Origin: Flagellimonas maritima
GTDB lineage: Bacteria; Bacteroidota; Bacteroidia; Flavobacteriales; Flavobacteriaceae
DNA length: 64,000 nt
Reading direction: 5' to 3'
NCBI RefSeq assembly: GCF_003269425.1
Contig: NZ_CP030104.1
Location: 310,001 to 374,000, forward strand
The translations under genes and the position numbers were made by a program. The notes below the pieces were generated by a model, which was not told the origin of the DNA, did not search any database, and worked only from the letters and a program-made list of their open reading frames with translations. Of this stretch, positions 7,380 through 22,175 are shown piece after piece. Position 1 is the stretch's first letter; each line of letters starts with the position of its first letter.

Positions 7380-8195
7380 TTACTTCATCGCTTCAATGGC
7401 ACGTTTTACAGAACCATATTTTTTTAATGCCTTTTCTGCATTTGCATAGTCCAGGCCAAGTTCCTCAACCAAATATCGTGTTCCCCTGTCTACCAATTTA
7501 GTGTTGCTCAATTGCATGTTCACCATTTTGTTTCCCTTTACTCTTCCAATACGAATCATTAAAGCGGTCGAAATCATATTGAGTACCATTTTTTGACTTG
7601 TACCGCTTTTCATTCTGGTACTCCCCGTCAAAAATTCTGGGCCTACATTAACTTCCATGGCGATATCAGTGTCAGTAGCCAAGGGTGAACCTGGATTGTT
7701 GGTAATGCCTGCAGTTAAAATACCATGGTCTTTTGCATAAGCGATACCTCCTAGCACATAAGGTGTGGTTCCTGAAGCAGCTATTCCTACCAGAACATCA
7801 TTGGCATTGATATCATAAGCTTTCAGATCTTTCCAAGCTTGGTGGACATCATCTTCTGCAAATTCCACAGCTTTACGAATCGCATTGTCACCACCGGCAA
7901 TCAACCCTATAACTTTATCATGAGGCATTCCAAACGTAGGCGGTATTTCAGAAGCATCCAGAATGCCCAATCTACCACTTGTACCAGCACCTATATAAAA
8001 TAATCTACCTCCATTTTCAAATCTTGTGGCCAGTGCATCCACCAATTCAGCGACTTTTGGCAAAACCCTTTCTACGGCCTCGGCAACTTTTTTGTCCTCA
8101 TTGTTGATATTGATTATAATATCTAAAGTATTCATTTGATCTAACTGATCATATAAGGACGGTTTCTCTGTAATTTTTACGTGCTTTTCTGCCAC
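7380..8195 (-). CDS. murQ: N-acetylmuramic acid 6-phosphate etherase
   Basis: This cytoplasmic enzyme cleaves the lactyl ether of MurNAc-6-phosphate to give GlcNAc-6-phosphate and D-lactate. The 271-residue protein has a SIS sugar-phosphate fold: GGRLFYIGAGTSGRLGILDA, EIPPTFG, the loop AASGTTPYVLGG, and the family signature GPEFLTGSTRMKSGTSQK before VLNMIST. The start is GTG at 8195; no ATG lies nearby upstream in frame, and the next internal Met (residue 22) would remove conserved N-terminal sequence. It begins 2 bases after the stop of the DeoR-type gene, so the two are cotranscribed. AnmK, which makes its substrate, is encoded at 21099-22175. Confidence 0.95.
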   Translation of the reverse strand: MAEKHVKITEKPSLYDQLDQMNTLDIIININNEDKKVAEAVERVLPKVAELVDALATRFENGGRLFYIGAGTSGRLGILDASEIPPTFGMPHDKVIGLIAGGDNAIRKAVEFAEDDVHQAWKDLKAYDINANDVLVGIAASGTTPYVLGGIAYAKDHGILTAGITNNPGSPLATDTDIAMEVNVGPEFLTGSTRMKSGTSQKMVLNMISTALMIRIGRVKGNKMVNMQLSNTKLVDRGTRYLVEELGLDYANAEKALKKYGSVKRAIEAMK

Positions 8196-8197
8196 TT

Positions 8198-8947
8198 TTA
8201 CAATAATTGTATGTTCATATTCTTAAAGACATCAAGTTTAATGTCCCAGGGTTCCAATTCAGTTATCAAAACATCCACTTCCTCTACCCCACATATTTTA
8301 TAACGTTGCAAAGATCCTATTTTTTCAGAAATACATGGAGACACAACTTTTCTGGAACTGTGTATCATTGCCTTCTTCATTTGTACAATCTCCCAATCGA
8401 ACTCTGTTAATCCTTCAATGGCGTGAATCGAATTCGTCCCCAAAAAACAAATATCGACTTTAATCTCTGATAACATATTGATTGCACTACCGCCAACGGC
8501 AATCTGAGAATCTTTAGACATTCGACCACCAATAAAAATAACCTCAATATTGGTTTTTCCCAATAGTTGTACAGCAATTGGAAGACTTGGCGTAAAACAT
8601 GTCAGTTTAATTTTTGAAGGCAATCGTCTTGCCAACTCAAGGTTGGTAGTTCCCCCGCTCAACAAAATTACCTGACCTTCTTTTATAAGGCTAAGTGCTT
8701 TTTCGGCAATTTGCGATTTTTTTTCGAGAGAATAAATCTTTTTTCCTATAGGATTATAATTATTAAATCCTAAAGAAATAGCTCCTCCATGAACCTTTTT
8801 TAATTGTTGGGAATTGTGCAATTCTTTAATATCCCTTCTAACGGTATCGACAGAAACATTTAGCAAGTTACTCAAATCAGTCAGTAATACCCTGTTGTGT
8901 ATTCGTACTTCGTTCAAAATAAACTGGTGCCTTTCTTCCTTTAACAT
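8198..8947 (-). CDS. DeoR/GlpR-family transcriptional regulator
   Basis: A 249-residue repressor-type protein. Residues 1-55 are a DeoR winged helix-turn-helix (ERHQFILNEV, then LLNVSVDTVRRDIKEL and KKVHGGA). Residues 75-235 are the sugar-phosphate sensor domain, with LLSGGTTNLELARRL, FIGGRMSKDSQIAVGG and CFLGTNSI. DeoR proteins usually bind DNA until a phosphosugar releases them. It sits in one unit with murQ and is divergent from the nagB fusion gene; the 176-bp gap contains TGCAATT direct repeats and a palindrome (9039-9055) that would suit its operator. The likely inducer is MurNAc-6-P, GlcNAc-6-P or GlcN-6-P (inference). MurQ regulators in other phyla are usually of the RpiR type. Confidence 0.88.
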   Translation of the reverse strand: MLKEERHQFILNEVRIHNRVLLTDLSNLLNVSVDTVRRDIKELHNSQQLKKVHGGAISLGFNNYNPIGKKIYSLEKKSQIAEKALSLIKEGQVILLSGGTTNLELARRLPSKIKLTCFTPSLPIAVQLLGKTNIEVIFIGGRMSKDSQIAVGGSAINMLSEIKVDICFLGTNSIHAIEGLTEFDWEIVQMKKAMIHSSRKVVSPCISEKIGSLQRYKICGVEEVDVLITELEPWDIKLDVFKNMNIQLL

Positions 8948-9038
8948 ATAGAATGTAAAGTTAAATAAATCTTAAAAACTATCGATTGCAGCAAAATACG
9001 GCAAAATGAATAAATAATTAAATTAAATTCAATAAAAC

Positions 9039-9079
9039 TGCAATTAATTGCAATTGATGCGGTTTTTTGCATATATTTG
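9039..9079 (+). promoter_or_regulatory. Promoter and probable operator of the nagB-susCD operon
   Basis: The perfect 14-bp palindrome TGCAATTAATTGCA lies at 9039-9052, and TGCAATT occurs as direct repeats at 9039 and 9049, one helical turn apart. A third half-site in reverse orientation (GATTGCA) is at 8984-8990. An exact Bacteroidota -7 element, TATATTTG, is at 9072-9079, with a TTG at 9048-9050 (21-bp spacing) inside the palindrome. A protein bound there would cover the -33 region, as expected for repression by the adjacent DeoR-type regulator. Binding is inferred. Confidence 0.5.
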
Positions 9080-9123
9080 GAGTTAATGTTTCGATATTTT
9101 GCGAGAACACTATATAATTATCG

Positions 9124-11031
9124 ATGAATAACCACTATCAAGAAGACCTAAGGTTTGAAAAAATTCAGACCATCATCCATGAGGATTCAAATATTGCTTC
9201 ACTATCTGTAGCAAACGAAATTGCAAGCTTGATCAACCAAAAACAGAAACAGGGCAAACATGCTGTTCTTGGATTGGCAACAGGTTCTACCCCTACAAAA
9301 ATGTATGATTACCTGGTTCAATTTCATAAAGAAGGTAGGTTAAGTTTTAAAAATGTTATAACCTTTAATCTTGACGAATACTTTCCAATGGAGCCAGACT
9401 CCATCCATAGTTACGTAAGGTTCATGAACGAACATCTTTTTGACCATATAGATATTGAACGCCACAATATCCACATTCCAAATGGTAACCTCAATAGAGA
9501 TGAAGTTCGTAAATACTGTGAGGACTATGAACAAAAAATCCAAAACGTAGGTGGATTGGATATACAGGTTCTTGGTATCGGTAGAACAGGACACATTGGT
9601 TTCAACGAACCAGGTTCCGCTCTAAACAGTAAAACACGATTGATACGTCTTGACCGAGTCACCAGATTGGATGCGGCCAGTGATTTTTTTGGTGAAGAAA
9701 ACGTTCCCAAAAGAGCAATCACAATGGGGGTTGGAACTATTATGGATGCTAAAAAAATCATCCTAATGGCATGGGGCGAAGGAAAATCTGAAATCATAAA
9801 ACAAGCAGTTGAAGGTAAAATAAGGGAATCGGTCCCCGCTACCTTTTTACAGCACCATGAAAATTGTGAGTTTGTATTGGATGGAGCAGCTGCATCATCA
9901 CTTACCAGAATGAAGACGCCTTGGCTGGTAACCGATTGCGATTGGGACGATAGCCTAATCAAGAGTGCTACAATTTGGTTGTCAGAAAAATTGGGTAAAG
10001 CCATACTTAAATTGACCAACGAAGATTATAACGAGTATGGGATGGGCAACTTGGTCGCAGAGATTGGTTCTGCAGAACAGATTAATCTAAAAGTTTTCAA
10101 TCAATTGCAACACACCATTACAGGTTGGCCGGGCGGAAAGCCAAATGCGGATGATAGCCAGAGACCTGAACGTGCAGCGCCACATCCAAAAACGTCACTA
10201 ATATTTAGCCCGCACCCTGATGATGATGTGATTTCAATGGGCGGGACACTGTTAAGATTGGTAGATCAGGCACATAATGTGCACGTAGCATACCAAACCT
10301 CTGGAAATATTGCTGTGTTTGATGATGAAGTCATTCGCTTTTTGGATTTTGCTACCGATATCCAAAAAGATGATAAGGAACTTAAAAAACAAGTAAAGAA
10401 GGTCCGTGAATTCTTGGCCAATAAAAAACCTGGAGAAATAGACAGTGCCGAGATACAACACTATAAAGGCCTCATAAGAAAAAGCGAAGCATTGGCAGCC
10501 TGTAGGTACTGTGGGGTGAAAGAAAAAAATGCCCATTTCCTCAACCTTCCTTTTTACGAAACGGGAGCCATTCGCAAAAAACCCTATTCAGATGAGGATA
10601 TACAAATAACGTATGATTTATTAAATACTATAAAACCACATCAGATATTTGCCGCTGGTGATCTTTCCGATCCACATGGAACACATAGGGTCTGTCTGGA
10701 AGTTGTATTTAAGACCTTGGAGCGATTAAAAGAAGAAAGGGCGGAATGGGTCAGGAATTGCTATGTATGGCTTTATCGAGGTGCATGGCAAGAATGGGAA
10801 ATAGCAGATATGGAAATGGCAGTTCCCATTGGACCAAAAGACATGGCCAGAAAGAAAAATGCAATTTTTAAGCATCAATCACAAAAGGATAGTGCCATGT
10901 TCCCCGGTAATGATGAAAGGGAATTCTGGGAGCGTGCCGAACAAAGAAACAAAAAGACCGCAAACCGATACAATGCACTCGGTATGGCAGAATATGAAGC
11001 TATGGAGGGCTTTGTAAGATATAATTTTTAA
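9124..11031 (+). CDS. nagB: Glucosamine-6-phosphate deaminase fused to a PIG-L/LmbE-type deacetylase domain
   Basis: A 635-residue two-domain protein. Residues 30-290 are a NagB deaminase/isomerase (GlcN-6-P to fructose-6-P plus ammonia): GLATGSTPTKMY, TFNLDEY with Asp84, and GIGRTGHIGFNEPGS with His157 and Glu162. The position of E. coli Asp141 is Thr155. Residues 355-635 are a PIG-L/LmbE zinc deacetylase domain with SPHPDDD (His364, Asp366, Asp367) and DPHGTHR (His518, His521). NagB alone is about 266 residues, so this is a true fusion. No nagA is seen in the window, so the second domain could remove the acetyl group from GlcNAc-6-P before deamination (inference). It lies 27 bp before susC and is probably cotranscribed with it. 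Confidence 0.9.
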   Translation: MNNHYQEDLRFEKIQTIIHEDSNIASLSVANEIASLINQKQKQGKHAVLGLATGSTPTKMYDYLVQFHKEGRLSFKNVITFNLDEYFPMEPDSIHSYVRFMNEHLFDHIDIERHNIHIPNGNLNRDEVRKYCEDYEQKIQNVGGLDIQVLGIGRTGHIGFNEPGSALNSKTRLIRLDRVTRLDAASDFFGEENVPKRAITMGVGTIMDAKKIILMAWGEGKSEIIKQAVEGKIRESVPATFLQHHENCEFVLDGAAASSLTRMKTPWLVTDCDWDDSLIKSATIWLSEKLGKAILKLTNEDYNEYGMGNLVAEIGSAEQINLKVFNQLQHTITGWPGGKPNADDSQRPERAAPHPKTSLIFSPHPDDDVISMGGTLLRLVDQAHNVHVAYQTSGNIAVFDDEVIRFLDFATDIQKDDKELKKQVKKVREFLANKKPGEIDSAEIQHYKGLIRKSEALAACRYCGVKEKNAHFLNLPFYETGAIRKKPYSDEDIQITYDLLNTIKPHQIFAAGDLSDPHGTHRVCLEVVFKTLERLKEERAEWVRNCYVWLYRGAWQEWEIADMEMAVPIGPKDMARKKNAIFKHQSQKDSAMFPGNDEREFWERAEQRNKKTANRYNALGMAEYEAMEGFVRYNF

Positions 11032-11058
11032 CTCTAATTAATTAAACTCAACTACTCT

Positions 11059-14000
11059 ATGAAAAAAATGCATTTAAATTTAGGAAGGCTATTGCTTTTC
11101 CTGCCTTTATTGATTCTGTTTTGTTCCAGCGCAATTGCTTATGGACAGAACGATCAATATACGATTACAGGAACAGTGACAGATGCCGCAAATGGAACTC
11201 CAATACCTGGAGCTTCTGTATTTATTGAAAACACTTCTTTTGGAAGTGTAACAGATTTTGATGGGAACTATACTTTCGTTGCAAATTTATCCTCGGGCAA
11301 TTATACCCTTGTAGCTAGCTATTTGGGATTTTCATCTTCAAAATCTGAACTTAGTTTCGGATCAAGTAGTTCTGTAAGTGCTGATTTTGTTCTCACAGAA
11401 GATTTGTTAAATTTGGACGAAGTGGTAGTAACGGGATCAACAGTAGTACAAGAAAGAAAAAAACTGGGTAACGCCGTAACTACCGTAAAAAGTGTAGAAC
11501 TTTTAAAAGCTGATCCTATTAACGTTACTTCTGCAATACAGGGTAAAGTTCCTGGCGCACAGATAACACAGAACTCAGGTGATCCAGCGGGGGGATTTTC
11601 CATCAGGTTAAGAGGTCCAAGTACTATTAGCGGATCTTCAGAACCTTTATATATAGTTGATGGTGTTATTGCAAGTAACTTAACAACGAATGTAACAAAT
11701 CTTAACGTCAGCGCGGGAGATGCGAGTCCTGGCCAAAACAGAATGGTGGACATCAATCCAAATGATATTCAGGATATTAATATTCTGAACGGTTCAGCCG
11801 CTGCTGCTATTTATGGATCACGTGCTTCTAATGGTGTTGTTGTAATTACAACTAAAAGAGGAACCAATATGGTAGACGGTCCTGAAATCTTTTTTAAGAC
11901 ATCTTTTAATGTAAATGATTTAAGGAAAGAAGTTGATGTAAATTTGAGAGGTGAACAGTTTGGAGGGGAAGATGTAAGACTTTGGCCAATATTTGGTAGA
12001 GATGCTGAAGGCAATACAACCCCTTTCGCAAATCTTCTGACAAATAAAGTAGACGTACAACGTTTTGATTACCAAGATTTGATTTTCCAAACGGGCCTTG
12101 GTACCGATAACTACTTATCAATCAGGGATGGTAACGAAAAAATGGGTTACGCGGCATCGGTGGGATATTTATCCAATGAAGGTATTATTAAGAATACAAA
12201 ATACAATAGACTTTCTGCTAGACTCAATTTTAACCATTCCGTCAATGATTGGCTTTCTTATAATGTAGGTCTTTATTTTATGAATAGCTCATCCGATGAA
12301 AAACCTGATGGTAATGTTTTTTGGAGTCCTATAAATTCTGTCAATATTACCAATAATATTTACGATGCATCTCAAAGAGACTCAAACGGAAATCTACAGA
12401 GCGTGGAGCCAACAAGAGTCAACCCATTGTCAATTATTGAAGACTTTGATATTACTCAAGATGTTACTAGGTTCATTCCTAATTTGACGGTATCCTTGAG
12501 ACCAACTGATTTTTTAACAATAGATCAGATTTTGGGTATGGATACCTATAAGCAAGAAGGTAATATTTCAATTCCAATCTATCCTTATGAGCCTGTAAAT
12601 GCAGCATATTTTAATCAAGGGTATCAAGGTAATGCCGAAGCAACGGTTTTCAATTGGAATTATGATATAAATGCCACGTTTGACTTTGATATCACCAACA
12701 ATATCAATTCACAGACCATTGTTGGATACAATTTTCAATCCAGTAGCGTAGAAGATTCTGGAACTCAAGGAAGGGATTTAGATGCCAACGGTGTACCTAC
12801 AGTTCCTTTACAACCACAATTTGGTGATGATAGATTAGATATTTTTGGAGGATTTATTCAAGAAACTTTATCGTTCAGTGATAGATATTTTTTAACATTT
12901 GCTGGAAGGGTTGATGGAGCAACAAACTTTGACCCAGACAAAAGAACAAACTTCTATCCAAAGGTTTCAGGTTCCTATGTATTATCAAGCGAGCCCTTTT
13001 GGGAAAATTCAGGCATATCCAATGTAATTAATTCAGCAAGAATACGTACATCTTATGGTGAAGCGGGAAATTTAACTGCTGTAGGTCCTTATGCAAGATT
13101 CGGTAGATATAACCCGAACGAATTTCAAGGTACAACGACCTTGAGCCAATCCAGTGCACTTGGTAACGAAGATTTGGAAGTGGAGCGATTGAAAGAATTT
13201 GAAATTGGTACAGATCTCAGCTTATTCGATAACAGAGCTTCTATATTGTTCACTTACTACAATCAGCAAATATCAGATCTAATTGTTCAACGTACATTAG
13301 CGCCATCTGAAGGAGGTCTTTCCAGATTTGAAAACGTTGGGAGCATGAAAAACAATGGTTTGGAAATTTACCTGAGAGTTACTCCTATTAGAACAGATAA
13401 CTTAAAATGGGATTTAAATTTCAACTTCTCCAGAAATAGAAATGAAGTTATCGCAACTACAGGCGGACCAATATCCATTGCAACTGTTAGTGGAGCTCCA
13501 CCACAGGTAAGAGAAGGTGAACCGCTAGGGGTATTTTTCGGAACTTATTTTGCAAGAAATGATGACGGTAGTTTATTATTGACCGAAGATGGTTTACCTC
13601 AACAGGAAAGAGGTGATGCCTTGGCGGGAACAATTCAAAGAGATGAAGACGGACAACCAACTGGCGATCCGCTGAGAAGGGTAATCGGTGATCCAAACCC
13701 AGATTATCTTTTGGGAATAGGAACAGATTTACAATACAAGCAATTTTCTTTCTCTATGCTATGGGAGTCTGTACAAGGTTTTGATGTTTTTGATGCTGAT
13801 AAACGTACCAGACAAGGTGTTGGTGTAGGAAGGTTGGCAGAGCAAGAATTATCAGGAGAATTGCCAAGAGGCTATATATCTTCAATCTATCCTATACAAG
13901 AGTTTAGAATGGAAGACGGTTCATTTGTAAAACTGCGCGAGGTATCCTTAGGTTATACTTTTCCAGAATTATTTAAAGGTGTGAAAAACTTTACAGTGGC

Positions 14001-14154
14001 TCTAAAAGGAAGAAACTTGATTTCCATTGACAACTTCTTTAGTTATGATCCAGAAACAAATGCTGGTGGGCAATCAAATTTGTTACGTGCTGTGAACTTT
14101 GGAAACGTTCCAATTCCGAGAACTTTTATTTTATCACTAAGCGCAAATTTCTAA
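11059..14154 (+). CDS. SusC/RagA-family TonB-dependent outer-membrane transporter
   Basis: A 1031-residue outer-membrane protein. It has a signal peptide (hydrophobic run LLLFLPLLILFCSSAIA), then a carboxypeptidase-regulatory-like domain at about residues 35-115 (TITGTVTDAANGTPIPGASV). The plug follows at about 118-240, with LDEVVVTGS, GKVPGAQITQNSGDPAGG, SEPLYIVDGV and the SusC signature AAAIYGSRASNGVVVITTK. The rest is a beta-barrel ending in an aromatic residue (SLSANF). SusC proteins import oligomers with a SusD partner, here the next gene. Because it lies between nagB and peptidoglycan-recycling genes, the cargo is predicted to be amino-sugar or peptidoglycan fragments. Confidence 0.93.
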   Translation: MKKMHLNLGRLLLFLPLLILFCSSAIAYGQNDQYTITGTVTDAANGTPIPGASVFIENTSFGSVTDFDGNYTFVANLSSGNYTLVASYLGFSSSKSELSFGSSSSVSADFVLTEDLLNLDEVVVTGSTVVQERKKLGNAVTTVKSVELLKADPINVTSAIQGKVPGAQITQNSGDPAGGFSIRLRGPSTISGSSEPLYIVDGVIASNLTTNVTNLNVSAGDASPGQNRMVDINPNDIQDINILNGSAAAAIYGSRASNGVVVITTKRGTNMVDGPEIFFKTSFNVNDLRKEVDVNLRGEQFGGEDVRLWPIFGRDAEGNTTPFANLLTNKVDVQRFDYQDLIFQTGLGTDNYLSIRDGNEKMGYAASVGYLSNEGIIKNTKYNRLSARLNFNHSVNDWLSYNVGLYFMNSSSDEKPDGNVFWSPINSVNITNNIYDASQRDSNGNLQSVEPTRVNPLSIIEDFDITQDVTRFIPNLTVSLRPTDFLTIDQILGMDTYKQEGNISIPIYPYEPVNAAYFNQGYQGNAEATVFNWNYDINATFDFDITNNINSQTIVGYNFQSSSVEDSGTQGRDLDANGVPTVPLQPQFGDDRLDIFGGFIQETLSFSDRYFLTFAGRVDGATNFDPDKRTNFYPKVSGSYVLSSEPFWENSGISNVINSARIRTSYGEAGNLTAVGPYARFGRYNPNEFQGTTTLSQSSALGNEDLEVERLKEFEIGTDLSLFDNRASILFTYYNQQISDLIVQRTLAPSEGGLSRFENVGSMKNNGLEIYLRVTPIRTDNLKWDLNFNFSRNRNEVIATTGGPISIATVSGAPPQVREGEPLGVFFGTYFARNDDGSLLLTEDGLPQQERGDALAGTIQRDEDGQPTGDPLRRVIGDPNPDYLLGIGTDLQYKQFSFSMLWESVQGFDVFDADKRTRQGVGVGRLAEQELSGELPRGYISSIYPIQEFRMEDGSFVKLREVSLGYTFPELFKGVKNFTVALKGRNLISIDNFFSYDPETNAGGQSNLLRAVNFGNVPIPRTFILSLSANF

Positions 14155-14164
14155 TAAGAAAACA

Positions 14165-15475
14165 ATGAAAAATATAAATAAAATTTTTATAGCAATTACC
14201 TTTTTCTCTGTCATTGTATCTTGTGACAAAGAATTTATAGATCCGATTAACATTTCCGATCCAGAAGTTGAAGGAAGTGTTGAAAACCTTGTTAAGCTTA
14301 TAAATGGAATCCAGCAACGTTTCAGTACTGACCGTGCAGGTGCTAAATATACAACGGTTACTGCATCTGGATTAACTGCTGACGAATTGAGATTGATCAA
14401 CCCTGGTAACTTAGGAGAAGCCGAATTAACAAATGGTGGCAATGAAATTTCCATCAACAACGGTGTTATTAGAAGTATGTGGGGAGGAATTATGCTAGTT
14501 CGAAATGAATCCTTGACTGTATTTGAAAGTGCTGATGCTGCGGCAGCAGACGAAGCAGAAGCCAATAGTCTAAAAGCTTATGCATTGTTTTATGAAGCTT
14601 TGGCGAATGGAACGCTAATTAGATTTTTTGAACAAGTACCTCTGGCGACCGAACAAAACGCAGAGTTTAACAGTAGAGCAGAAGTATTGGCTGATGCAAT
14701 AAGTAATTTAAATATTGCTTTAGGATATGTCCAGAATGGTATTTCTTCATCCGTATCTTCAGGTGTTTTCCAATCTGTAGATTTGGAGAATTCTATCCAA
14801 GCATTACTTGCAAGATATCATTTAATGGCAGGTAACTATGCAGAAGCGGTTACAGCCGCAAATGCTGTTGACCTATCAGTACAATCTACTTGGTCATATG
14901 ATGCGGCGATACCAAATCCTATTGCCGAAACTTACGGGACCAACAATGTTGTTGAAGCAAAAGACGATGAATTTGGACTGCCGGATGACCTCTTACCAGA
15001 CCCAGACGATGAACGTGTTGATTTCTACGTTACCATTGCGAATGACCCTTCTACAAATGAAGATGCATTTTTTGCAGTTGGTTTCTTTGATGATAATTTA
15101 GATGAGATTCCTGTTTATCTTCCTGGTGAAATGCTATTGATTGAAGCGGAAGCATTGGCCAGGCAAGGTCAAGTTCCTCAGGCTATCACAGTATTGAACG
15201 AGGTATTGACAAAAACCGCTGCGGAAGATGCCTTTGGAGTTGGTGCTAATTTACCTCCTTATGCGGGGGCAGCAACCGAAGAAGCAGTTTTGGAAGAAAT
15301 CTATAGAAATAGACGTATTGAATTATTTTTAAGTGGAATGTCACTAGAAGATAGTAGAAGATTTAATAGACCAGGTCCAGGTGACGCCAATTCTGAGCGA
15401 AACAGGAATTATTATCCATATCCAGATACGGAAAGGGACAATAATACCAATACCCCGCCTGATCCAACAAATTAA
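14165..15475 (+). CDS. SusD/RagB-family outer-membrane lipoprotein
   Basis: A 436-residue lipoprotein with lipobox VIVSC (Cys20), starting 10 bp after susC. It has SusD features: an N-terminal region beginning EFIDPINISDPE, TPR-like helices (about 125-250: KAYALFYEALANGTLIRFF, LLARYHLMAGNYAEAVTAA) and a C-terminal segment with the PGEMLLIEAEALARQG and EEIYRNRRIELFLSG helices typical of the family. SusD proteins cap the SusC barrel and bind the glycan. It is shorter than the usual 480-550 residues and acidic. It is followed by a strong terminator, so it ends the first transcription segment. Confidence 0.88.
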   Translation: MKNINKIFIAITFFSVIVSCDKEFIDPINISDPEVEGSVENLVKLINGIQQRFSTDRAGAKYTTVTASGLTADELRLINPGNLGEAELTNGGNEISINNGVIRSMWGGIMLVRNESLTVFESADAAAADEAEANSLKAYALFYEALANGTLIRFFEQVPLATEQNAEFNSRAEVLADAISNLNIALGYVQNGISSSVSSGVFQSVDLENSIQALLARYHLMAGNYAEAVTAANAVDLSVQSTWSYDAAIPNPIAETYGTNNVVEAKDDEFGLPDDLLPDPDDERVDFYVTIANDPSTNEDAFFAVGFFDDNLDEIPVYLPGEMLLIEAEALARQGQVPQAITVLNEVLTKTAAEDAFGVGANLPPYAGAATEEAVLEEIYRNRRIELFLSGMSLEDSRRFNRPGPGDANSERNRNYYPYPDTERDNNTNTPPDPTN

Positions 15476-15521
15476 ACAACATTAATTTTGAGTTAGTTGT
15501 TAGTTTCAATTTAATCAAGCG

Positions 15522-15557
15522 AAAAGGCCTACATTTAGTCCACGGTAGGCCTTTTTT
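15522..15557 (+). terminator. Rho-independent terminator after susD
   Basis: AAAAGGCCTAC (15522-15532) pairs perfectly with GTAGGCCTTTT (15545-15555) across a 12-base loop and runs into a T tract. It stands 46 bp after the susD stop and only 13 bp before the next start codon, so it separates, or attenuates between, two halves of the locus. Confidence 0.85.
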
Positions 15558-15569
15558 AGTTACTATAAT

Positions 15570-17072
15570 ATGCAAAGAATCTGTTACATCGTTCTTCTAC
15601 TCTGCTGTATATCATGTAGTACATACAAAAAAAGCAATGCGCCCAAAAAAGAATTTAGAGGCGTATGGATTGCAACAGTTGTAAACATCGACTGGCCAAA
15701 AAATGCCAATGACGATTCTGCAAAACAGAAAAAGGATTTTTTGAAAATCCTTGATTTTTATCAAAAGCTTAATTTCAATGCAGCTATTGTTCAGATACGA
15801 ACAGCTGGCGACGCATTTTATAAGACAAATTTGGCTCCTTGGTCCAAATACTTAACCGGAAAAGAAGGCGAGGCCCCCAAAGACTTTAACGAACCTTTAA
15901 ACTGGATGATAGCAGAGACCCATAAGCGTGGAATGGAATTTCATGCATGGCTGAATCCCTATAGGGCCACTTTTAATTTGGATACACTTTCACTTTCAAA
16001 AGAGCACGATTTTTACAAGCATCCAGATTGGATGCTCAAGTATGGAAAAAAATACTATTATAATCCTGGCTTGCCAGAAGTGCAACACAAGCTGACCAAC
16101 ATAATTACAGAAATCGTTACAGATTATCCTGTGGATGCAATCCATTTTGATGATTATTTCTACCCCTATAAAATTAAAGATGAAGTTTTTAACGACAGTA
16201 TCACTTTTAAGACCTACGGTTTACAAAACCAAAGGTTGGATGACTGGCGAAGAAGCAATGTAGACTCGTTGGTAAAAAAAGTACATAGATCCATCAGAAA
16301 AAATAAACCATGGGTTCAATTTGGAATCAGCCCTTTTGGAGTATGGAAAAATAAAAGTACAGATCCCAAAGGATCGGACACAAAGGCGGGGCAAACCACT
16401 TATGAAGATTTATATGCCGACCCACTGTTATGGATTGAAAAAGGGTGGATCGATTATTTGGTTCCGCAAGCCTATTGGAGCATGGATTATGACCCTGCTT
16501 CGCACAGAACAATAGCAACTTGGTGGGCCAATACCATAGAGAACACTAATCTTTATATGGGAAACGGTCCCTATAAAATCAAGAACAATACAGATAAAGC
16601 CTGGAACAAAAAGAAAGAAATCCCAAAACAGATAGCGTTCGCCAGAGAAGAGCCAAATATTACAGGGAATGTTTTTTTTAGTGCTAAATCATTATTGGGA
16701 CAAAACGAAAATGTAACAAAAATCTTAAAAAGGAAATTTTATAGATTTCCTGCACAAAACCCAGATGGCCTGGTGAAGTCAAAAAGAAACGTCCCAAAGC
16801 CTAAAATTGAATCCATACAAGTAAATGAAACCAATATTAGAATAAACACGGTACATAAAGACAGTATTCCCCGATTTCTTCAGTTTTACCTAAAGCTGGA
16901 CTCCAATGAAAAGTTGCTTATTAAAAAAAGTTACCTTTCCGAAAATGAAAATTTGAACACGACCCAAATTCAATTACCAAAAAGTCAGCTTAAGAATATG
17001 ATGGTAGTTTCGGTAATCGATGCCTATGGAAATGAAAGTGAATTGCAGCCATTGAAACTAAAATCAGACTGA
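15570..17072 (+). CDS. GHL10-family (DUF187) glycosyl hydrolase-like lipoprotein, DigH/YngK type
   Basis: A 500-residue lipoprotein (lipobox CCISC, Cys16). The GHL10/DUF187 TIM-barrel covers about residues 28-390: EFRGVWIATVVNIDWPKN, FNAAIVQIRTAGDAFY, MEFHAWLNPYRATFN, VDAIHFDDYFYPY, VQFGISPFGVWKN and YLVPQAYWSMDY. The C-terminal 110 residues look like a beta-sandwich. The characterised E. coli member DigH (formerly YddW) is an outer-membrane lipoprotein that cleaves peptide-free peptidoglycan glycan strands. That activity would fit the recycling genes around it (inference by family and context). The gene starts 13 bp after the terminator. Confidence 0.87.
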   Translation: MQRICYIVLLLCCISCSTYKKSNAPKKEFRGVWIATVVNIDWPKNANDDSAKQKKDFLKILDFYQKLNFNAAIVQIRTAGDAFYKTNLAPWSKYLTGKEGEAPKDFNEPLNWMIAETHKRGMEFHAWLNPYRATFNLDTLSLSKEHDFYKHPDWMLKYGKKYYYNPGLPEVQHKLTNIITEIVTDYPVDAIHFDDYFYPYKIKDEVFNDSITFKTYGLQNQRLDDWRRSNVDSLVKKVHRSIRKNKPWVQFGISPFGVWKNKSTDPKGSDTKAGQTTYEDLYADPLLWIEKGWIDYLVPQAYWSMDYDPASHRTIATWWANTIENTNLYMGNGPYKIKNNTDKAWNKKKEIPKQIAFAREEPNITGNVFFSAKSLLGQNENVTKILKRKFYRFPAQNPDGLVKSKRNVPKPKIESIQVNETNIRINTVHKDSIPRFLQFYLKLDSNEKLLIKKSYLSENENLNTTQIQLPKSQLKNMMVVSVIDAYGNESELQPLKLKSD

Positions 17073-17074
17073 TT

Positions 17075-17557
17075 ATGCAAGATATGCTTGTTAGGCTTTT
17101 AGATTTACCAGATATCGCTAAAGAGGAAGATTTTCTTTTGAAAACCGAAGATATTGTAATTAAAAGACCCATTGCACCTGAGAAAAGCATAGTCACATCT
17201 TGGGTAACATCCAATTTTAGCACTAATTGGGCCGATGAGGTTGATGTAGCTTTTGCCAATCTTCCCGTTAATTGTTATATCGCGCAACGTGGACAGTCAA
17301 TTTTGGGTTTTGCGTGTTTCGAATGTACCTCAAAGAATTTTTTTGGCCCAACGGGTGTACTCGCATCAGAACGTGGAAAAAGTATTGGGAAAGTACTTCT
17401 CGTAAAATCGCTCGATGCATTAAAAGAAATGGGGTATGCCTATGCAATCATAGGAGGTGTAGGTCCAGTATCATATTATGAAAAAACAGTACATGCCCGT
17501 ACTATTGAAAAATCGGAAAAAAGCATCTATCAAAACTTGTTAAAACATCCAAAATGA
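17075..17557 (+). CDS. GNAT-family N-acetyltransferase
   Basis: A 160-residue cytoplasmic protein with a GNAT fold. The acetyl-CoA pyrophosphate loop is at residues 92-102 (ASERGKSIGKV, the R/QxxGxG/A pattern), followed by a helix (LLVKSLDALKEMG) and the strand YAIIGGVGPVSYYEK. It starts 2 bases after the GHL10 stop and its end overlaps the ampG-like start by ATGA, so translation is probably coupled. The substrate is unknown; an amino sugar or muropeptide amine is suggested only by position. Confidence 0.85.
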   Translation: MQDMLVRLLDLPDIAKEEDFLLKTEDIVIKRPIAPEKSIVTSWVTSNFSTNWADEVDVAFANLPVNCYIAQRGQSILGFACFECTSKNFFGPTGVLASERGKSIGKVLLVKSLDALKEMGYAYAIIGGVGPVSYYEKTVHARTIEKSEKSIYQNLLKHPK

Positions 17558-18837
17558 GCGCTGAAAAAAAAGATAAAGGCGCGTGGGCCTGGATACCATT
17601 GCTCTATTTTACACAAGGTATCCCGTATATTTTGGTGGTAACAGTTTCCGTAATCATGTATAAACGCCTGGGAATAAGTAACGCCGAAATAGGCCTATAT
17701 ACCAGTTGGCTTTATTTACCATGGGTTATAAAGCCTTTATGGAGCCCTTTGGTCGATCTAAATGGAACAAAGAGAAAATGGTTTTTGGCAATGCAGTTTG
17801 TTGTTGCTTTGGCCTTTTTGGGCATTGGACTATTTCTTCCTTCAAATGCATTCTTCACAATTACGTTGGCGTTTTTTTGGATGGCTGCATTCGCATCGGC
17901 AACCAATGATATAGCCTCAGATGGTTATTATATGATTGGTCTTACTCAAAAGAAGCAATCTTTTTTTATAGGGCTGCGCAGCACTTTTTATAGGCTTGCC
18001 ATGGTTACGGGACAAGGGCTATTGGTGATTTTTGCAGGATTTCTTGAAAACAAATATGGAGATAATACAAAAGCTTGGTCCATGACCATGATATGTGCTG
18101 CAATTTTGATGCTAGTTTTGACCGTATCAAACTTTTTCGCGGCACCAAAATTTGAAGAACCACAAAAAAAATCAACTGAAAAACCAGTAGGGTTTTTAGA
18201 AGTATTTGCCTCATTTTTTAGAAAAAATCATATCTGGGTTGCATTGTTATTTATTCTGACATATCGTTTGGGCGAATCGCAATTGGTAAAAATGGCATCT
18301 CCCTTCTTATTGGATACATTGGAAGTCGGAGGTTTGGAATACTCAACTGAAGCTGTGGGAACCATCTATGGAACCGTTGGAATTATTATGTTATCACTGG
18401 GCGGAATCATAGGAGGAATCCTAATCTCCAGGGACGGTTTAAAAAAATGGATGCTACCAATGCTTTTGGCACTTAATCTTCCAAATGTACTATATGCAAT
18501 ATTGGCTTACACACAATCCACAAGTCTTTTTGCAGTTGTGGGAACAGTCGTTTTGGAACAATTTGGCTATGGATTCGGTTTTGCAGCCTTTCTTATTTAT
18601 CTCATTTATATATCTGAAGGAATCTCAAAAACTTCACATTATGCCATAGCAACAGGATTCATGGCATTGGGAATGATGATTCCAGGAATGTTAAGTGGTT
18701 ACATACAAGAATGGCTGGGATATGATGGATTCTTTCTTTGGGTCGTAATCGCCGCTTTGCCAGCCTTCTTTGTACTTCGATTTTTGGAATACCCTGCCGA
18801 TTACGGAAAAAAATCAAATGAAAGCGATGTCCAATAA
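17554..18837 (+). CDS. ampG: AmpG-like MFS muropeptide permease
   Basis: A 427-residue membrane protein with about 12 hydrophobic segments. It matches the AmpG branch of the MFS: WIPLLYFTQGIPYILV, YTSWLYLPWVIKPLWSPLVD and FASATNDIASDGYYMIGL. AmpG imports GlcNAc-1,6-anhydroMurNAc (with or without peptide) across the inner membrane. The nagZ-like and anmK genes just downstream act on exactly these imported products, which supports the assignment. It overlaps both neighbours (ATGA upstream, 11 bases downstream). Confidence 0.85.
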   Translation: MSAEKKDKGAWAWIPLLYFTQGIPYILVVTVSVIMYKRLGISNAEIGLYTSWLYLPWVIKPLWSPLVDLNGTKRKWFLAMQFVVALAFLGIGLFLPSNAFFTITLAFFWMAAFASATNDIASDGYYMIGLTQKKQSFFIGLRSTFYRLAMVTGQGLLVIFAGFLENKYGDNTKAWSMTMICAAILMLVLTVSNFFAAPKFEEPQKKSTEKPVGFLEVFASFFRKNHIWVALLFILTYRLGESQLVKMASPFLLDTLEVGGLEYSTEAVGTIYGTVGIIMLSLGGIIGGILISRDGLKKWMLPMLLALNLPNVLYAILAYTQSTSLFAVVGTVVLEQFGYGFGFAAFLIYLIYISEGISKTSHYAIATGFMALGMMIPGMLSGYIQEWLGYDGFFLWVVIAALPAFFVLRFLEYPADYGKKSNESDVQ

Positions 18838-20437
18838 ACTGCTTCCATACAAAACGGCAAGAGAAAAACTTACGATAAAACAAAAAGTGGGGCAATTGTT
18901 CATGCCTGCAGTTTTTATCAATGACAGCGAAGAAGAAATTATTAAAATCGAAAGTTTAATACGAACAAACACCATAGGGGCCATTTGCTTTTTTCACAGT
19001 AGGGCCAGTGCAGCAACAAATTTTGAGGGAAAGAAGGATGTAATATATAATGAAAACAGTTATGAGCGATTAAAACAACTCATTAAAAGATACCAAAAAG
19101 CCGCTGACATTCCTTTGCTCGTAGCCATTGATGCTGAATGGGGGCTTGCCATGCGGATAGAAAATACAAATCAATATCCCTACGCTATCACTTTGGGGTC
19201 AATACAGGAAGATAACGAACTGATTCACGAAGTTGGAAGACAAATAGCGCTGGACTGTATAAAAGCTGGGATTCATTGGAATTTGGCGCCCGTAGTGGAT
19301 ATCAATAACAATCCAAAGAATCCTGTAATTGGATATAGGGCTTTTGGTGATGACAAAAATGAAGTTACCGCTAAAGCGGAAGCTTATATCAATGGAATGA
19401 AAAGTGTGGGAGTACTCAATGCCATCAAACATTTTCCAGGCCACGGCGATACGGATACAGATTCCCATTTGGGATTACCAGTAATACACAAATCAAGACA
19501 GGAGCTGTTTGAAAATGAGCTCTACCCCTATAATAAATTGATAAAAAAAGGTGTGGATGCTGTTATGGTTGGGCATTTGTCGGTGCCTGGATTGGACAAT
19601 TCCGGTAACCCCTCCACAACATCACCAAAAATTATAACGGATTTGCTGCGAAACGAATTGAACTTTGAAGGCGTTATCATTTCCGATGCTTTAAACATGC
19701 ATGCCGTATCAAAAAAGTATTCCCAAAATGGAGCACTTGAAGCCAATGCTTTTGCTGCTGGAATGGACATGATGTGCTTTTCTGAAAATTCGGAAGAAGG
19801 TATTGCGAAAATTTTGTCCACAGCTTCCGAGCATAATATTGAATGTAGTTTTAGGCGATTATGGAAGTTAAAAGAAAAAATATTCTTTGAGGTCAATGGA
19901 AAAGCAGACCTTAAATGTAAATCCACTTCAGAATTGAATCGGAAAATTGCCAGCAAATGTATCACCGAGCTTTATGGAGAACCTAACAACATAAAGGATT
20001 TTAACAAAACCCATTTCTTGAATCTTTCCATTGAAAATCATTCCAAAAACTTTTTTTCATCTGAAATTGAATCAGAATATGGAAAAAAACGGCTAACATT
20101 GAACAATCTAACAATTGATGAGGTCAAAACAAAAGCTTCCCAACATCAGCATATAGTATTGGCACTCTTTCCACCTTCGGTAAAGCCAAAAAATCATTTT
20201 GGGTTTCCCAGAAAACTGTTAGACATTATCAGGAGTTTAATCGCCCAAAAAAACATTTTGATCTATCTCTTTGGAAATCCCTATGTCTTGGATGAGCTAG
20301 GATTAAAGCCCGATTCCAATGCAGTCGTGATTTATCAAGATTTTATCGAATTTCAGCAAGAAGCTTTTTCTCATTTTTCTGAAAAAATACAAGCCTTGGG
20401 CAAACTTCCCATAACCCTAAAAACGTTTGAAGCATGA
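18827..20437 (+). CDS. nagZ: Glycoside hydrolase family 3, beta-N-acetylglucosaminidase (NagZ-like)
   Basis: A 536-residue cytoplasmic protein (no signal peptide). The GH3 TIM-barrel is at about 15-340, with the NagZ signature KHFPGHGDTDTDSH (His202, Asp208) and the nucleophile motif ISDALNMHAVS (Asp287). A second domain at about 365-536 resembles the GH3 C-terminal domain, unlike the 341-residue single-domain E. coli NagZ. NagZ removes GlcNAc from GlcNAc-anhydroMurNAc. Start: ATG 18827 or ATG 18818, both overlapping the ampG end; a longer frame back to 18770 is unlikely. It overlaps the next gene by ATGA. Confidence 0.87.
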   Translation: MSNKLLPYKTAREKLTIKQKVGQLFMPAVFINDSEEEIIKIESLIRTNTIGAICFFHSRASAATNFEGKKDVIYNENSYERLKQLIKRYQKAADIPLLVAIDAEWGLAMRIENTNQYPYAITLGSIQEDNELIHEVGRQIALDCIKAGIHWNLAPVVDINNNPKNPVIGYRAFGDDKNEVTAKAEAYINGMKSVGVLNAIKHFPGHGDTDTDSHLGLPVIHKSRQELFENELYPYNKLIKKGVDAVMVGHLSVPGLDNSGNPSTTSPKIITDLLRNELNFEGVIISDALNMHAVSKKYSQNGALEANAFAAGMDMMCFSENSEEGIAKILSTASEHNIECSFRRLWKLKEKIFFEVNGKADLKCKSTSELNRKIASKCITELYGEPNNIKDFNKTHFLNLSIENHSKNFFSSEIESEYGKKRLTLNNLTIDEVKTKASQHQHIVLALFPPSVKPKNHFGFPRKLLDIIRSLIAQKNILIYLFGNPYVLDELGLKPDSNAVVIYQDFIEFQQEAFSHFSEKIQALGKLPITLKTFEA

Positions 20438-21102
20438 GTAATGATATTCTTTCTTCCTGGGAAAAGAATGCTTCGGAATGGATTAAAGTGATTCGAGATA
20501 ATAGTATTCCATCAAGAAGATTCACCAACAAGGCAATATTGGAAACGATTGCAGAATTGGATGCAAAAAATTTTGTGGATATAGGCTGTGGAGAAGGTTG
20601 GTTGACACGGGAAATAAGTAATATTGGATTCAATGCCAGTGGTTTGGATGCTATTGAAAACCTGATTTTGGAGGCTAGAAAAAAAGGTTCGGAAGATTAT
20701 CATGTATTTACTTTTGAAGATATCATCGAAGCAAAACCTATTCCCAATGCGCCTTTTGATGTTGCAATCTTCAACTTCTGTCTCTATCTGAACGAAGAAT
20801 TGAAAACACTTTTGGAACATACCCTGAAAAGCATTTTGGCTGGCGGATATGTTCTTATTCAAACATTACATCCGTTTTTCCTTCTTCAAAATGGACTAGC
20901 CTACAAAAGTCAATGGCTAACAGATTCATGGAAAGGCTTGCCGGGAAAATTTGAGGACGGCCATTCTTGGTATGCTAGAACTTTTGAAGATTGGTATAAA
21001 GTACTCTCTTCGTTGGAAAATATTGAAATATCCATAAAAGAAATTTTAAATGACGAAGAAAAACCCATTTCGTTGATTTTCAAACTAAAAAAGATATCAT
21101 GA
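20434..21102 (+). CDS. Class I SAM-dependent methyltransferase of unknown substrate
   Basis: A 222-residue Rossmann methyltransferase. Motif I is FVDIGCGEGWLTREIS (residues 48-63), motif II has the acidic residue in ASGLDAIE, and IPNAPFDVAIFNFCLYLNEE fits motif IV. A C-terminal lid contains GHSWYARTFEDWYKVL. It overlaps nagZ (ATGA) and anmK (4 bases), so it belongs to the recycling operon. No known step of peptidoglycan recycling needs a methyltransferase, so its role is open. Confidence 0.85.
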   Translation: MSNDILSSWEKNASEWIKVIRDNSIPSRRFTNKAILETIAELDAKNFVDIGCGEGWLTREISNIGFNASGLDAIENLILEARKKGSEDYHVFTFEDIIEAKPIPNAPFDVAIFNFCLYLNEELKTLLEHTLKSILAGGYVLIQTLHPFFLLQNGLAYKSQWLTDSWKGLPGKFEDGHSWYARTFEDWYKVLSSLENIEISIKEILNDEEKPISLIFKLKKIS

Positions 21103-22175
21103 AGAAATACAAGGTCGTAGGGTTGATGTCGGGAACATCTTTGGATGGATTGGACTTGGCCTATTGTCATCTTTGGCAAACCAATGAGCATTGGGAATTT
21201 TCTATTGAATTTACAAAAGAAGTCCAATACGGCGAGAAAATGCGGGACTATCTAAAAAATGCCATTTACTTAACAGAAAATGACCATGCCCAACTTCATA
21301 AAGATTATGGTGTTTGGTTAGGGGAACAGGTTAAATACTTCATCGAAGAAAACAATCTTGAAGTTAATTTCATATCAAGCCATGGGCACACATCCCATCA
21401 CAGACCGGAAGATGGGTTTACCTTTCAATTGGGCGATGGACAATTGTTGGCAGATACTTGCAATAAACAAGTGGTCTGCGATTTTAGAACAGAAGATGTT
21501 TCACTCGGTGGACAAGGTGCTCCTTTGGTCCCTATCGGTGACAGATTATTGTTCCATCAGTATGATTTTTGCTTGAACCTTGGTGGAATCAGTAATATTT
21601 CATTTGAAAAAGAAGGGCATCGTATTGCCTATGATATAGGTCTGGCCAATATGCCTTTGAATTTTATAACAGAAAAAATGGGACTCGCTTATGATGAAGG
21701 AGGAAAACTTGCAAGAAGCGGAAACTTGGATACTGTATTACTTCAAAAACTCAATCAGTTGGAATATTACAAATTACCCTACCCCAAGTCAACAGGTTAC
21801 GAGTTTTTTACTGAGCAAGTCGTTCCATTGATTGAAGCCTCAAATATATCTGATGTTGATTTACTACATACTTTTATCCATCACAATTGCGAACAAATAG
21901 CAAAGGATGTCCATGAGCATAAATCAGGGTCAAATCAAACTATTTTGGTTGCCGGCGGTGGTGCTCTGAACATTTTTTTCATAGATACATTAAAAGAAAA
22001 GCTTGGGCCTGATATTAAAGTAATCGTCCCCCCTAAAAAATTGGTAGCATTTAAAGAGGCATTGGTTTTCGCTTTAATGGGAGCATTACGCCTAGAGGAA
22101 AAAATCAATGTTCTGAGTACGGTGACCGGAGCCAAAAGGGATTCTTCCAGTGGAACAGTATACCATCCAGCATAG
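21099..22175 (+). CDS. anmK: Anhydro-N-acetylmuramic acid kinase
   Basis: A 358-residue kinase of the ASKHA fold, close in length to E. coli AnmK (369). It has the family start VVGLMSGTSLDGLDLAYCHL (phosphate 1), ISSHGHTSHHRPEDGFTFQL, LGGQGAPLVPIGD, LNLGGISNIS and AGGGALN near the C terminus. AnmK hydrolyses the 1,6-anhydro ring and phosphorylates anhydroMurNAc to MurNAc-6-P, the MurQ substrate. It is the last gene of the plus-strand operon and converges with the bcr-like gene 15 bp away. Confidence 0.95.
   Translation: MKKYKVVGLMSGTSLDGLDLAYCHLWQTNEHWEFSIEFTKEVQYGEKMRDYLKNAIYLTENDHAQLHKDYGVWLGEQVKYFIEENNLEVNFISSHGHTSHHRPEDGFTFQLGDGQLLADTCNKQVVCDFRTEDVSLGGQGAPLVPIGDRLLFHQYDFCLNLGGISNISFEKEGHRIAYDIGLANMPLNFITEKMGLAYDEGGKLARSGNLDTVLLQKLNQLEYYKLPYPKSTGYEFFTEQVVPLIEASNISDVDLLHTFIHHNCEQIAKDVHEHKSGSNQTILVAGGGALNIFFIDTLKEKLGPDIKVIVPPKKLVAFKEALVFALMGALRLEEKINVLSTVTGAKRDSSSGTVYHPA

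What the first reader, a model, noticed from the sequence alone, without database searches (positions are those of the whole stretch)
7380..22175. A compact peptidoglycan-recycling locus built around a SusC/SusD importer
murQ, a DeoR-type regulator, a nagB fusion, susC, susD, a DigH-like GHL10 lipoprotein, an AmpG-like permease, a NagZ-like GH3 and anmK stand together, mostly with overlapping starts and stops. The known reactions chain completely: glycan cutting outside, outer- and inner-membrane import, NagZ, AnmK, MurQ, then entry into fructose-6-P. Classic recycling genes are scattered in E. coli, and a dedicated SusCD pair for muropeptide glycan is not something I know as a characterised system. 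It may be a polysaccharide-utilisation-type locus for cell-wall material, own or foreign.
Basis: partly seen in the sequence, partly recalled or inferred. Interest (0 to 1): 0.72.

Follow-up and report, generated by a model that had tools for sequence, protein, structure and literature searches.

The report
Cell-wall recycling operon with swappable importer
A marine bacterium keeps its genes for reusing cell-wall sugar in one operon, and an outer-membrane importer that comes and goes in its relatives has been fitted into it, probably so that wall fragments from outside can be eaten as well.

Summary
The locus is not built around SusC/SusD. A core (murQ, nagB-PIG-L, ampG, GH3, anmK) stands in the same order in 16 of 19 sampled genera with the closest AnmK; none of the 19 has SusCD in it. 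In the window's genus, SusCD sits in one slot in 36 of 55 resolvable loci, in three unlike types. SusCD-bearing loci carry a distinct DeoR, which in the window stands in place of the ancestral one. The SusD subfamily occurs across Bacteroidota; 57 of the 80 loci examined (of 309 found) have murQ, anmK, namZ or the nagB fusion within 10 kb, against 0 of 20 control SusD loci. Import of MurNAc-containing fragments is thus well supported by neighbourhood, untested by experiment. Two reader claims fail: cutting 'outside' (GHL10 lacks a surface-export signal) and a 'complete' chain (no NagA over cut-off in this genome; the PIG-L half of the fusion is the best substitute). A murein-linked SusCD locus has been annotated in print (Urechidicola symbiont, 2023); my searches listed no experiment on such an importer.

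The parts
7380..8195 (-). murQ, MurNAc-6-phosphate etherase
   Evidence: TIGR00274 312 bits over cut-off 302; DASE and GSTRMK motifs
8198..8947 (-). DeoR/GlpR-type regulator of the SusCD-associated clade
   Evidence: PF00455, PF08220; tree placement
8948..9123 (.). divergent control region: operator-like TGCGGTTTTTTGC at 9058-9070 (one-mismatch variants at 8991 and 9039) one base upstream of a TAnnTTTG box at 9072-9079
9124..11031 (+). NagB (GlcN-6-P deaminase) fused to a PIG-L deacetylase domain
   Evidence: NF002557 1061.6 bits; PF01182+PF02585; HPDD and HxxH in 58 of 58; no NagA over cut-off in genome
11059..14154 (+). SusC-type TonB-dependent outer-membrane transporter (optional cassette)
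   Evidence: TIGR04056 608.7 bits over 368.25; slot survey
14165..15475 (+). SusD-type surface lipoprotein with ERNRN.YPYP signature (optional cassette)
   Evidence: PF07980 33.9 bits over 23.1; alignment A1; contexts
15570..17072 (+). GHL10 lipoprotein, Cwp19-like lytic transglycosylase candidate, probably periplasm-facing
   Evidence: PF02638 234 bits; Cwp19 5oq2 E 1.9e-104; N-termini
17075..17557 (+). GNAT-like protein of unknown role
   Evidence: weak PF00583 E 0.0056, below cut-off
17554..18837 (+). AmpG-like inner-membrane permease
   Evidence: TIGR00901 191 bits, below cut-off 350; solved AmpG 9c3f E 1.6e-24
18827..20437 (+). NagZ-like GH3 beta-N-acetylglucosaminidase, no signal peptide by eye
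   Evidence: PF00933; NF003740 170.5 bits, below cut-off 207; D-S-H dyad in 64 of 64
20434..21102 (+). class I methyltransferase that accompanies this SusCD type; role unknown
   Evidence: PF13489; 22 of 22 sequence-read loci with type-1/3 SusCD vs 1 of 19 without
21099..22175 (+). anmK, anhydro-MurNAc kinase
   Evidence: NF007144 506 bits over 436; one AnmK match in the genome

Best explanation
It is a peptidoglycan-sugar recycling operon to which a surface importer has been added. Shown: a conserved core; a slot between nagB and ghl10 that is empty or holds one of three SusCD types; a SusCD-associated DeoR standing in place of the ancestral DeoR in the window; wide association of this SusD subfamily with MurNAc genes. 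Inferred mechanism: SusD captures soluble peptidoglycan-derived glycan or muropeptide fragments at the surface and SusC imports them with TonB; GHL10 in the periplasm trims them to GlcNAc-anhydroMurNAc units; AmpG carries these inward; the GH3 removes GlcNAc; AnmK makes MurNAc-6-P; MurQ gives GlcNAc-6-P and D-lactate; the PIG-L half of the fusion deacetylates GlcNAc-6-P (stand-in for the missing NagA) and the NagB half yields fructose-6-P. DeoR represses the divergent murQ-deoR and nagB-to-anmK units from operators next to the nagB promoter until a pathway sugar phosphate appears. Core-only relatives recycle their own wall; the cassette adds outside fragments.
For: Core order in 16 of 19 genera with AnmK 51-63% identical, SusCD in the slot in 0 of 19; 20 loci (of 93) with AnmK 43-48% identical share no other queried gene. 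Genus: 55 of 60 genomes resolvable, 36 with SusCD in the slot (6 window-like, 27 second type, 3 third type), 19 without (25 of the 36 read as sequence, 11 called from SusD-AmpG hit spacing). Parsimony on the core tree needs 12 changes of slot state. DeoR tree: window DeoR lies with the susC-side DeoRs of eight two-DeoR loci; 15 of 15 single-DeoR SusCD loci of the genus in that clade, 18 of 19 SusCD-less loci in the other. Subfamily context 57 of 80 vs 0 of 20. Separate loci deoR/susC-susD-(namZ)-SSF symporter-murQ in six genomes (five distinct) and susCD-mt-anmK-SSF-murQ in two (identical SusD). Operator pattern: 61 sites in 56 deoR-nagB gaps vs 0.1 in shuffles; TAnnTTTG in 49 of 56 vs 8.5. 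GHL10: full-domain match to Cwp19, reported as a lytic transglycosylase (PMC6016235, passages). No NagA over cut-off; fusion in 58 of 120 genomes, 47 of these without NagA.
Against: No ligand, expression or growth data. 23 of 80 subfamily loci show none of the four marker genes, and 16 of those 23 are 15 kb or longer; one (L234) sits by a sulfatase, so the subfamily may not be uniform. AmpG-like and NagZ-like proteins score below NCBI's curated cut-offs. The operator pattern was read off the same gaps it was counted in, and the gaps are homologous. Within this window the pattern with one mismatch is no commoner than chance (5 vs 5.3), though four of its five matches lie in the 176-bp control region; it is rare in susC-side gaps (4 of 22). 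All 11 genomes with NagA also carry the NagB fusion, so the two do not exclude each other. The methyltransferase and GNAT-like genes have no place in the scheme.
Confidence: 0.66

Rival explanations
1. SusCD imports GlcNAc-rich material such as chitin oligomers or other amino-sugar glycans, and stands here because it shares NagB and the DeoR signal, not because it carries MurNAc.
For: In several Hymenobacter and Saprospiraceae loci the subfamily stands beside the NagB-PIG-L fusion with no murQ hit nearby (e.g. L242, L248, L254). NagB serves any GlcNAc source.
Against: None of the window cluster's proteins matched a chitinase or GH20 family; murQ, anmK or namZ, which act on MurNAc, are within 10 kb in 48 of 80 loci vs 0 of 20 controls; L242 also has a GHL10 gene.
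Confidence: 0.17
2. The whole locus, SusCD included, serves recapture of the cell's own shed wall fragments, not foraging on others.
For: AmpG, NagZ, AnmK and MurQ are own-wall recycling enzymes in model bacteria (recalled); GHL10 is predicted to face the periplasm.
Against: Congeners keep the core without SusCD (19 of 55), and three unlike SusCD types swap in the slot, which suits a changing external supply; other loci of the subfamily carry NamZ and a separate symporter. None of this excludes recapture.
Confidence: 0.3
3. SusCD is an unrelated passenger that happens to lie in the operon.
For: It is absent from many loci and is exchanged often.
Against: SusCD also occupies the same slot in Cellulophaga baltica, uncultured Aquimarina (no murQ hit there) and one more genus; a SusCD-associated DeoR stands at the core promoter; the subfamily is tied to MurNAc genes in unrelated loci.
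Confidence: 0.05

Closest known systems
Urechidicola symbiont murein-linked PUL (PMC10199937; passages and one figure legend read)
   Same: SusCD with deoR, murQ, nagB, ampG, GH3, GH10, GH171 on one contig; [quoted passage not shown]
   Different: Two SusCD pairs, plus amidase, epimerase, carboxypeptidase, GH18 and GH171; annotation and transcript data, substrate left open in the passages; slot exchange and DeoR replacement not described in the passages read
Tannerella forsythia ampG-ybbC-murTKQ operon (PMC5388701, PMC7670621; passages read)
   Same: AmpG and MurQ in one transcript of a Bacteroidota; AmpG function shown in E. coli
   Different: No SusCD or AnmK in the operon as listed; regulator is GppX; free-MurNAc transporter MurT and kinase MurK
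E. coli anhydromuropeptide recycling (AmpG, NagZ, AnmK, MurQ; recalled)
   Same: Same reaction order
   Different: Genes scattered, NagA present, no TonB-dependent importer (recalled)
Cwp19 / DigH GHL10 enzymes (PMC6016235, PMC12288456; passages read)
   Same: GHL10 domain; Cwp19 aligns over the full domain
   Different: Cwp19 is a Gram-positive surface autolysin with cell-wall-binding repeats; DigH acts on denuded glycan at the E. coli septum, its GHL10 membership is recalled and it was not aligned here
B. thetaiotaomicron fructan PUL SusC/SusD variation (PMC5967196; abstract and outline read)
   Same: Same PUL, different SusCD in close relatives, with different substrate use
   Different: Fructan; here SusCD is optional and the rest of the operon persists without it

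Membership tests
Polysaccharide utilisation locus (SusCD-centred) | susC-susD pair with glycan-active genes and a regulator | tested here: met
Polysaccharide utilisation locus (SusCD-centred) | SusCD is the constant centre of the homologous loci | tested here: not met
   absent in 19 of 55 congeners and from the slot in 19 of 19 other-genus loci
Polysaccharide utilisation locus (SusCD-centred) | surface-exposed glycan-cutting enzyme | tested here: not met
   GHL10 lacks export signal in 46 of 47; rule-based, not localisation data
MurQ | curated equivalog score and catalytic Glu motif (motif recalled) | tested here: met
AnmK | curated equivalog score | tested here: met
AmpG | NCBI curated score | tested here: not met
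   191 bits vs 350; kin to solved AmpG
AmpG | muropeptide transport | not testable with these tools
   needs assay
NagZ (GH3) | NCBI curated score | tested here: not met
   170.5 vs 207
NagZ (GH3) | Asp-His dyad of GH3 N-acetylglucosaminidases | tested here: met
   64 of 64; dyad described in PMC6987092 (passages)
GHL10 lytic transglycosylase (Cwp19 type) | GHL10 domain aligned over its length | tested here: met
GHL10 lytic transglycosylase (Cwp19 type) | anhydroMurNAc products | not testable with these tools
   needs product analysis
NagB-PIG-L fusion (NF002557) | curated score, both domains with motifs | tested here: met
NagB-PIG-L fusion (NF002557) | GlcNAc-6-P deacetylase activity | not testable with these tools
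   inferred from missing NagA
SusD | Pfam score; SusD fold by structure search | tested here: inconclusive
   Pfam met; model mean pLDDT 69; fold search never accepted, machine busy

The most novel reading that the evidence does not exclude
There is a phylum-wide SusC/SusD subfamily (SusD signature ERNRN.YPYP..ER) devoted to importing peptidoglycan-derived MurNAc glycans. In Flagellimonas/Allomuricauda-type flavobacteria it moves as a block with its own DeoR (in L150 vs L177 apparently with nagB too), plugging into a house-keeping recycling operon and putting it under the importer's regulator, so that own-wall recycling becomes foraging on other bacteria's walls. The fused PIG-L domain replaces NagA.
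Probability: 0.45. Interest if true: 0.78.

Novelty: new variant of a known kind. Interest (0 to 1): 0.6.

Why it matters
The T. forsythia passages read concern inner-membrane uptake of muropeptides and MurNAc, and my searches (capped listings) showed no tested outer-membrane importer of peptidoglycan fragments in Bacteroidota. This locus names a candidate with a sequence signature, a regulator, an operator and natural plus/minus pairs, so the question becomes directly testable. It also points to a possible NagA replacement in flavobacterial genomes that lack NagA, which would mend pathway reconstructions for many of them.

Tried and rejected
Rejected: SusCD as a conserved centre; surface cutting by GHL10 (rule-based); a strict anti-correlation of NagA and the fusion (NagA in 11 of 120, all 11 with the fusion). 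Recent transfer of SusCD judged by four-fold sites: susC is higher than its flanks (L131-L132 82% vs 42-76% for genes other than susC/susD; window-L129 54% vs 30-49% for genes other than susC/susD, susD itself 41%), but codon bias of a highly expressed gene would do the same, so it is left open. The operator pattern read off deoR-nagB gaps does not carry over to susC-side gaps (4 of 22). Generic sigma-70 and terminator scans were at shuffle level. Sequence search for SusD relatives of known ligand gave two weak hits with no ligand named. A SusD model was obtained, but fold search and a second model (NagB-PIG-L) were never accepted. NagK, D-lactate use and AmgK/MurU in this genome were not searched. 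Signal peptides were judged by eye, no predictor was run. The 5.8-billion-protein search and scans of viral or metagenome contigs were not used.
Full report
What is there. The window lies at bases 310001-374000 of a one-contig 3.77-Mb genome. Eight of ten junctions are 27 bp or less, four of them overlapping; the others are the 94-bp gap before ghl10 and the 176-bp divergent region between deoR and nagB. Motifs checked (window and fetched orthologues): PIG-L metal motifs 58 of 58, NagB His/Glu motif 53 of 58, GH3 dyad 64 of 64, GH3 nucleophile motif 61 of 64, MurQ 74 of 74, AnmK GTS.DG.D 90 of 90 (a second AnmK motif 64 of 90). One oddity: the position recalled as Asp141 of E. coli NagB is Thr, invariant in 12 aligned fusions; the solved NagB 2bkv (recalled as B. 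subtilis) has Asn there.

The core is older than the importer. AnmK is found in 113 of 120 sampled family genomes, the window's included, in two identity classes. I read the surroundings of all 19 others in the high class (51-63%) and of 20 of the 93 in the low class. In 16 of the 19, gsdh, murQ, nagB, ampG, GH3 and anmK follow in order (gsdh lies outside the stretch fetched for L035 and L044); deoR is present in 15, ghl10 in 8 and the methyltransferase in 3 of those 16; SusCD is in the slot in none of the 19 (L036 has a SusC far from it). Of the other three, two show only gsdh-murQ-anmK and one anmK alone in the stretch read. The 20 low-class loci share no other queried gene with the window.

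The slot. AmpG was found in 58 of 60 genomes of the genus; three of the 58 are too fragmented. Of 55, SusCD lies between nagB and ghl10/ampG in 36: 6 window-like, 27 of a second type with SusD about 40% identical to the window's, 3 with a third type (SusC 31-34% to the second type; the one SusD of the three that I scanned, L174, belongs to another Pfam family, PF12771). 25 of the 36 were read as sequence; 11 of the second type were called from the spacing of SusD and AmpG hits. 19 have no SusCD. nagB is missing from the stretch in L141, L182 and L187 (SusCD then follows deoR directly) and in L154 of another genus. On a quick tree of the joined core proteins (61 loci, L133 left out, SH-aLRT support only) parsimony needs 12 changes of slot state, 9 for presence alone; strongly supported branches force at least 8 for the label 'none'. 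L131 and L196 have close cores (MurQ 96%, AmpG 94%) and different SusCD; L150 and L177 are sisters with and without. In the last pair murQ and ampG are alike (96-97%) while deoR (60%) and nagB (85%, four-fold sites 35% against 56-70% in the genes other than deoR and nagB) differ, which suggests that a block from deoR to SusCD was exchanged together.

Regulator replacement. Eight loci have two deoR genes, one by nagB and one divergent to susC. In the DeoR tree (80 rows) the susC-side copies of these loci fall in one group (98/85) with the window's DeoR; the nagB-side copies of the same loci lie in the ancestral group. 15 of 15 single-DeoR SusCD loci of the genus in the tree have the SusCD-associated DeoR, and 18 of 19 SusCD-less loci the ancestral one (exception L186, perhaps a loss of SusCD). 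L130 and L133 are not counted, their deoR reading frames being split or cut. Cellulophaga baltica (L139/L221) has SusCD with a DeoR outside that group, a further exception.

Control region. TGCNRTTTWWTGC, a pattern I read off these gaps by eye, occurs 61 times in 56 deoR-nagB gaps (44 with a hit) against 0.1 in shuffles; the gaps are homologous, so the number measures conservation, not independent evidence. TAnnTTTG, recalled as the Bacteroidota -7 box, occurs in 49 of 56 against 8.5, and in 17 of 22 susC-side gaps against 4.1. In the window the operator (9058-9070) ends one base before the box (9072-9079). Across 43 gaps with both, distances cluster near 1, 9-10, 17-19 and 29-30, about one helical turn apart. 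Against this: in the window alone the one-mismatch pattern is at chance number, and susC-side gaps rarely carry it (4 of 22).

The SusD subfamily elsewhere. Outside the slot I read 19 SusD loci (L134-L138, L140, L143, L144, L151-L153, L155-L160, L192, L193; L135/L136 and L143/L144 have near-identical SusD); 15 have murQ and/or namZ nearby; L151, L156, L159 and L160 do not. Six are compact deoR/susC-susD-(namZ)-SSF symporter-murQ loci, namZ in four of them; L157 adds LD-carboxypeptidase, epimerase-like, AnmK and a FAD/4Fe-4S oxidase that could take MurQ's D-lactate. NamZ in these loci shows no obvious signal peptide by eye (two starts are uncertain). 57 of 80 have murQ, anmK, namZ or the nagB fusion within 10 kb (42 of the 58 loci that are 15 kb or longer); 0 of 20 control SusD loci from nine genomes do (Fisher 1.8e-9; related loci are not independent; controls are all of the window's family). 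I chose the controls from the printed part of the hits. Two distant AnmK hits were checked and are AnmK by Pfam (L246, L285). Of the 23 without a marker, five were looked at through six proteins: SLT transglycosylase (L271), GH3-beta-lactamase and PagL (L252), an HGSNAT-type acetyltransferase (L258), a sulfatase (L234), a weak DUF4153 match (L260).

Topology and chemistry. SusDs carry acidic residues just after the lipid Cys (42 of 43; the one miss, L153, is probably a misplaced Cys), GHL10 orthologues do not (46 of 47). The export-signal rule was read in passages of PMC5080379. GHL10 matches the Cwp19 domain end to end; Cwp19 gives anhydroMurNAc ends (PMC6016235, passages), which is what AnmK needs. 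NagA: no hit over cut-off in this genome, best 28 bits vs 225.65, all 23 candidates scored; in the family sample at most 14 candidates per genome were scored. The fusion's PIG-L half has distant kin among diacetylchitobiose deacetylases (8bgn, E 2.7e-5).

Known work. T. forsythia has an ampG-murTKQ operon without SusCD as listed. The Urechidicola symbiont PUL is the closest printed case found and was noted as murein-related. Maribacter forsetii has a GH3 gene next to an AnmK gene, consistent with the core (PMC11345257, passage). The listings (top entries only) showed no experimental SusCD importer of peptidoglycan fragments; the library lacks most subscription papers. The listings showed no paper titled or abstracted on the NagB-PIG-L fusion as a GlcNAc-6-P deacetylase.

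Verdict. The import substrate, the PIG-L step and the methyltransferase's role remain inference.

Noticed in passing
20434-21102; L143, L144, L159, L236-L238: The methyltransferase is present in 22 of 22 sequence-read genus loci with type-1/3 SusCD (window included), 1 of 19 without, 0 of 3 with the third type, and sits next to susD in separate loci; I know of no MurNAc step that needs it.
   Followed up: partly
17075-17557: GNAT-like gene between ghl10 and ampG in many SusCD-bearing congeners (also L184, L189 without SusCD), with no Pfam match over cut-off.
   Followed up: partly
L134-L138, L140, L157: Separate compact loci deoR/susC-susD-(namZ)-SSF symporter-murQ; the NamZ proteins lack an obvious signal peptide, unlike the lipoprotein-like NamZ of the window's genome (L204).
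   Followed up: partly
L157, L155: A 970-aa FAD-oxidase/4Fe-4S protein beside murQ-anmK, a candidate D-lactate dehydrogenase for MurQ's by-product.
   Followed up: no
L195, L252: GH3-beta-lactamase-family fusion proteins in or beside loci of the same SusD subfamily.
   Followed up: no
L242, L258: HGSNAT-type membrane acetyltransferase directly after susD in Hymenobacter.
   Followed up: no
L037-L039, L041, L043, L045, L178, L190, L191, L200: A second NagB-PIG-L subfamily (about 57% identical) occupies the same place in the core, so nagB seems to be exchanged too.
   Followed up: no
9124-11031: Residue 155, matching E. coli NagB position 141 (recalled), is Thr in all 12 aligned fusions.
   Followed up: partly
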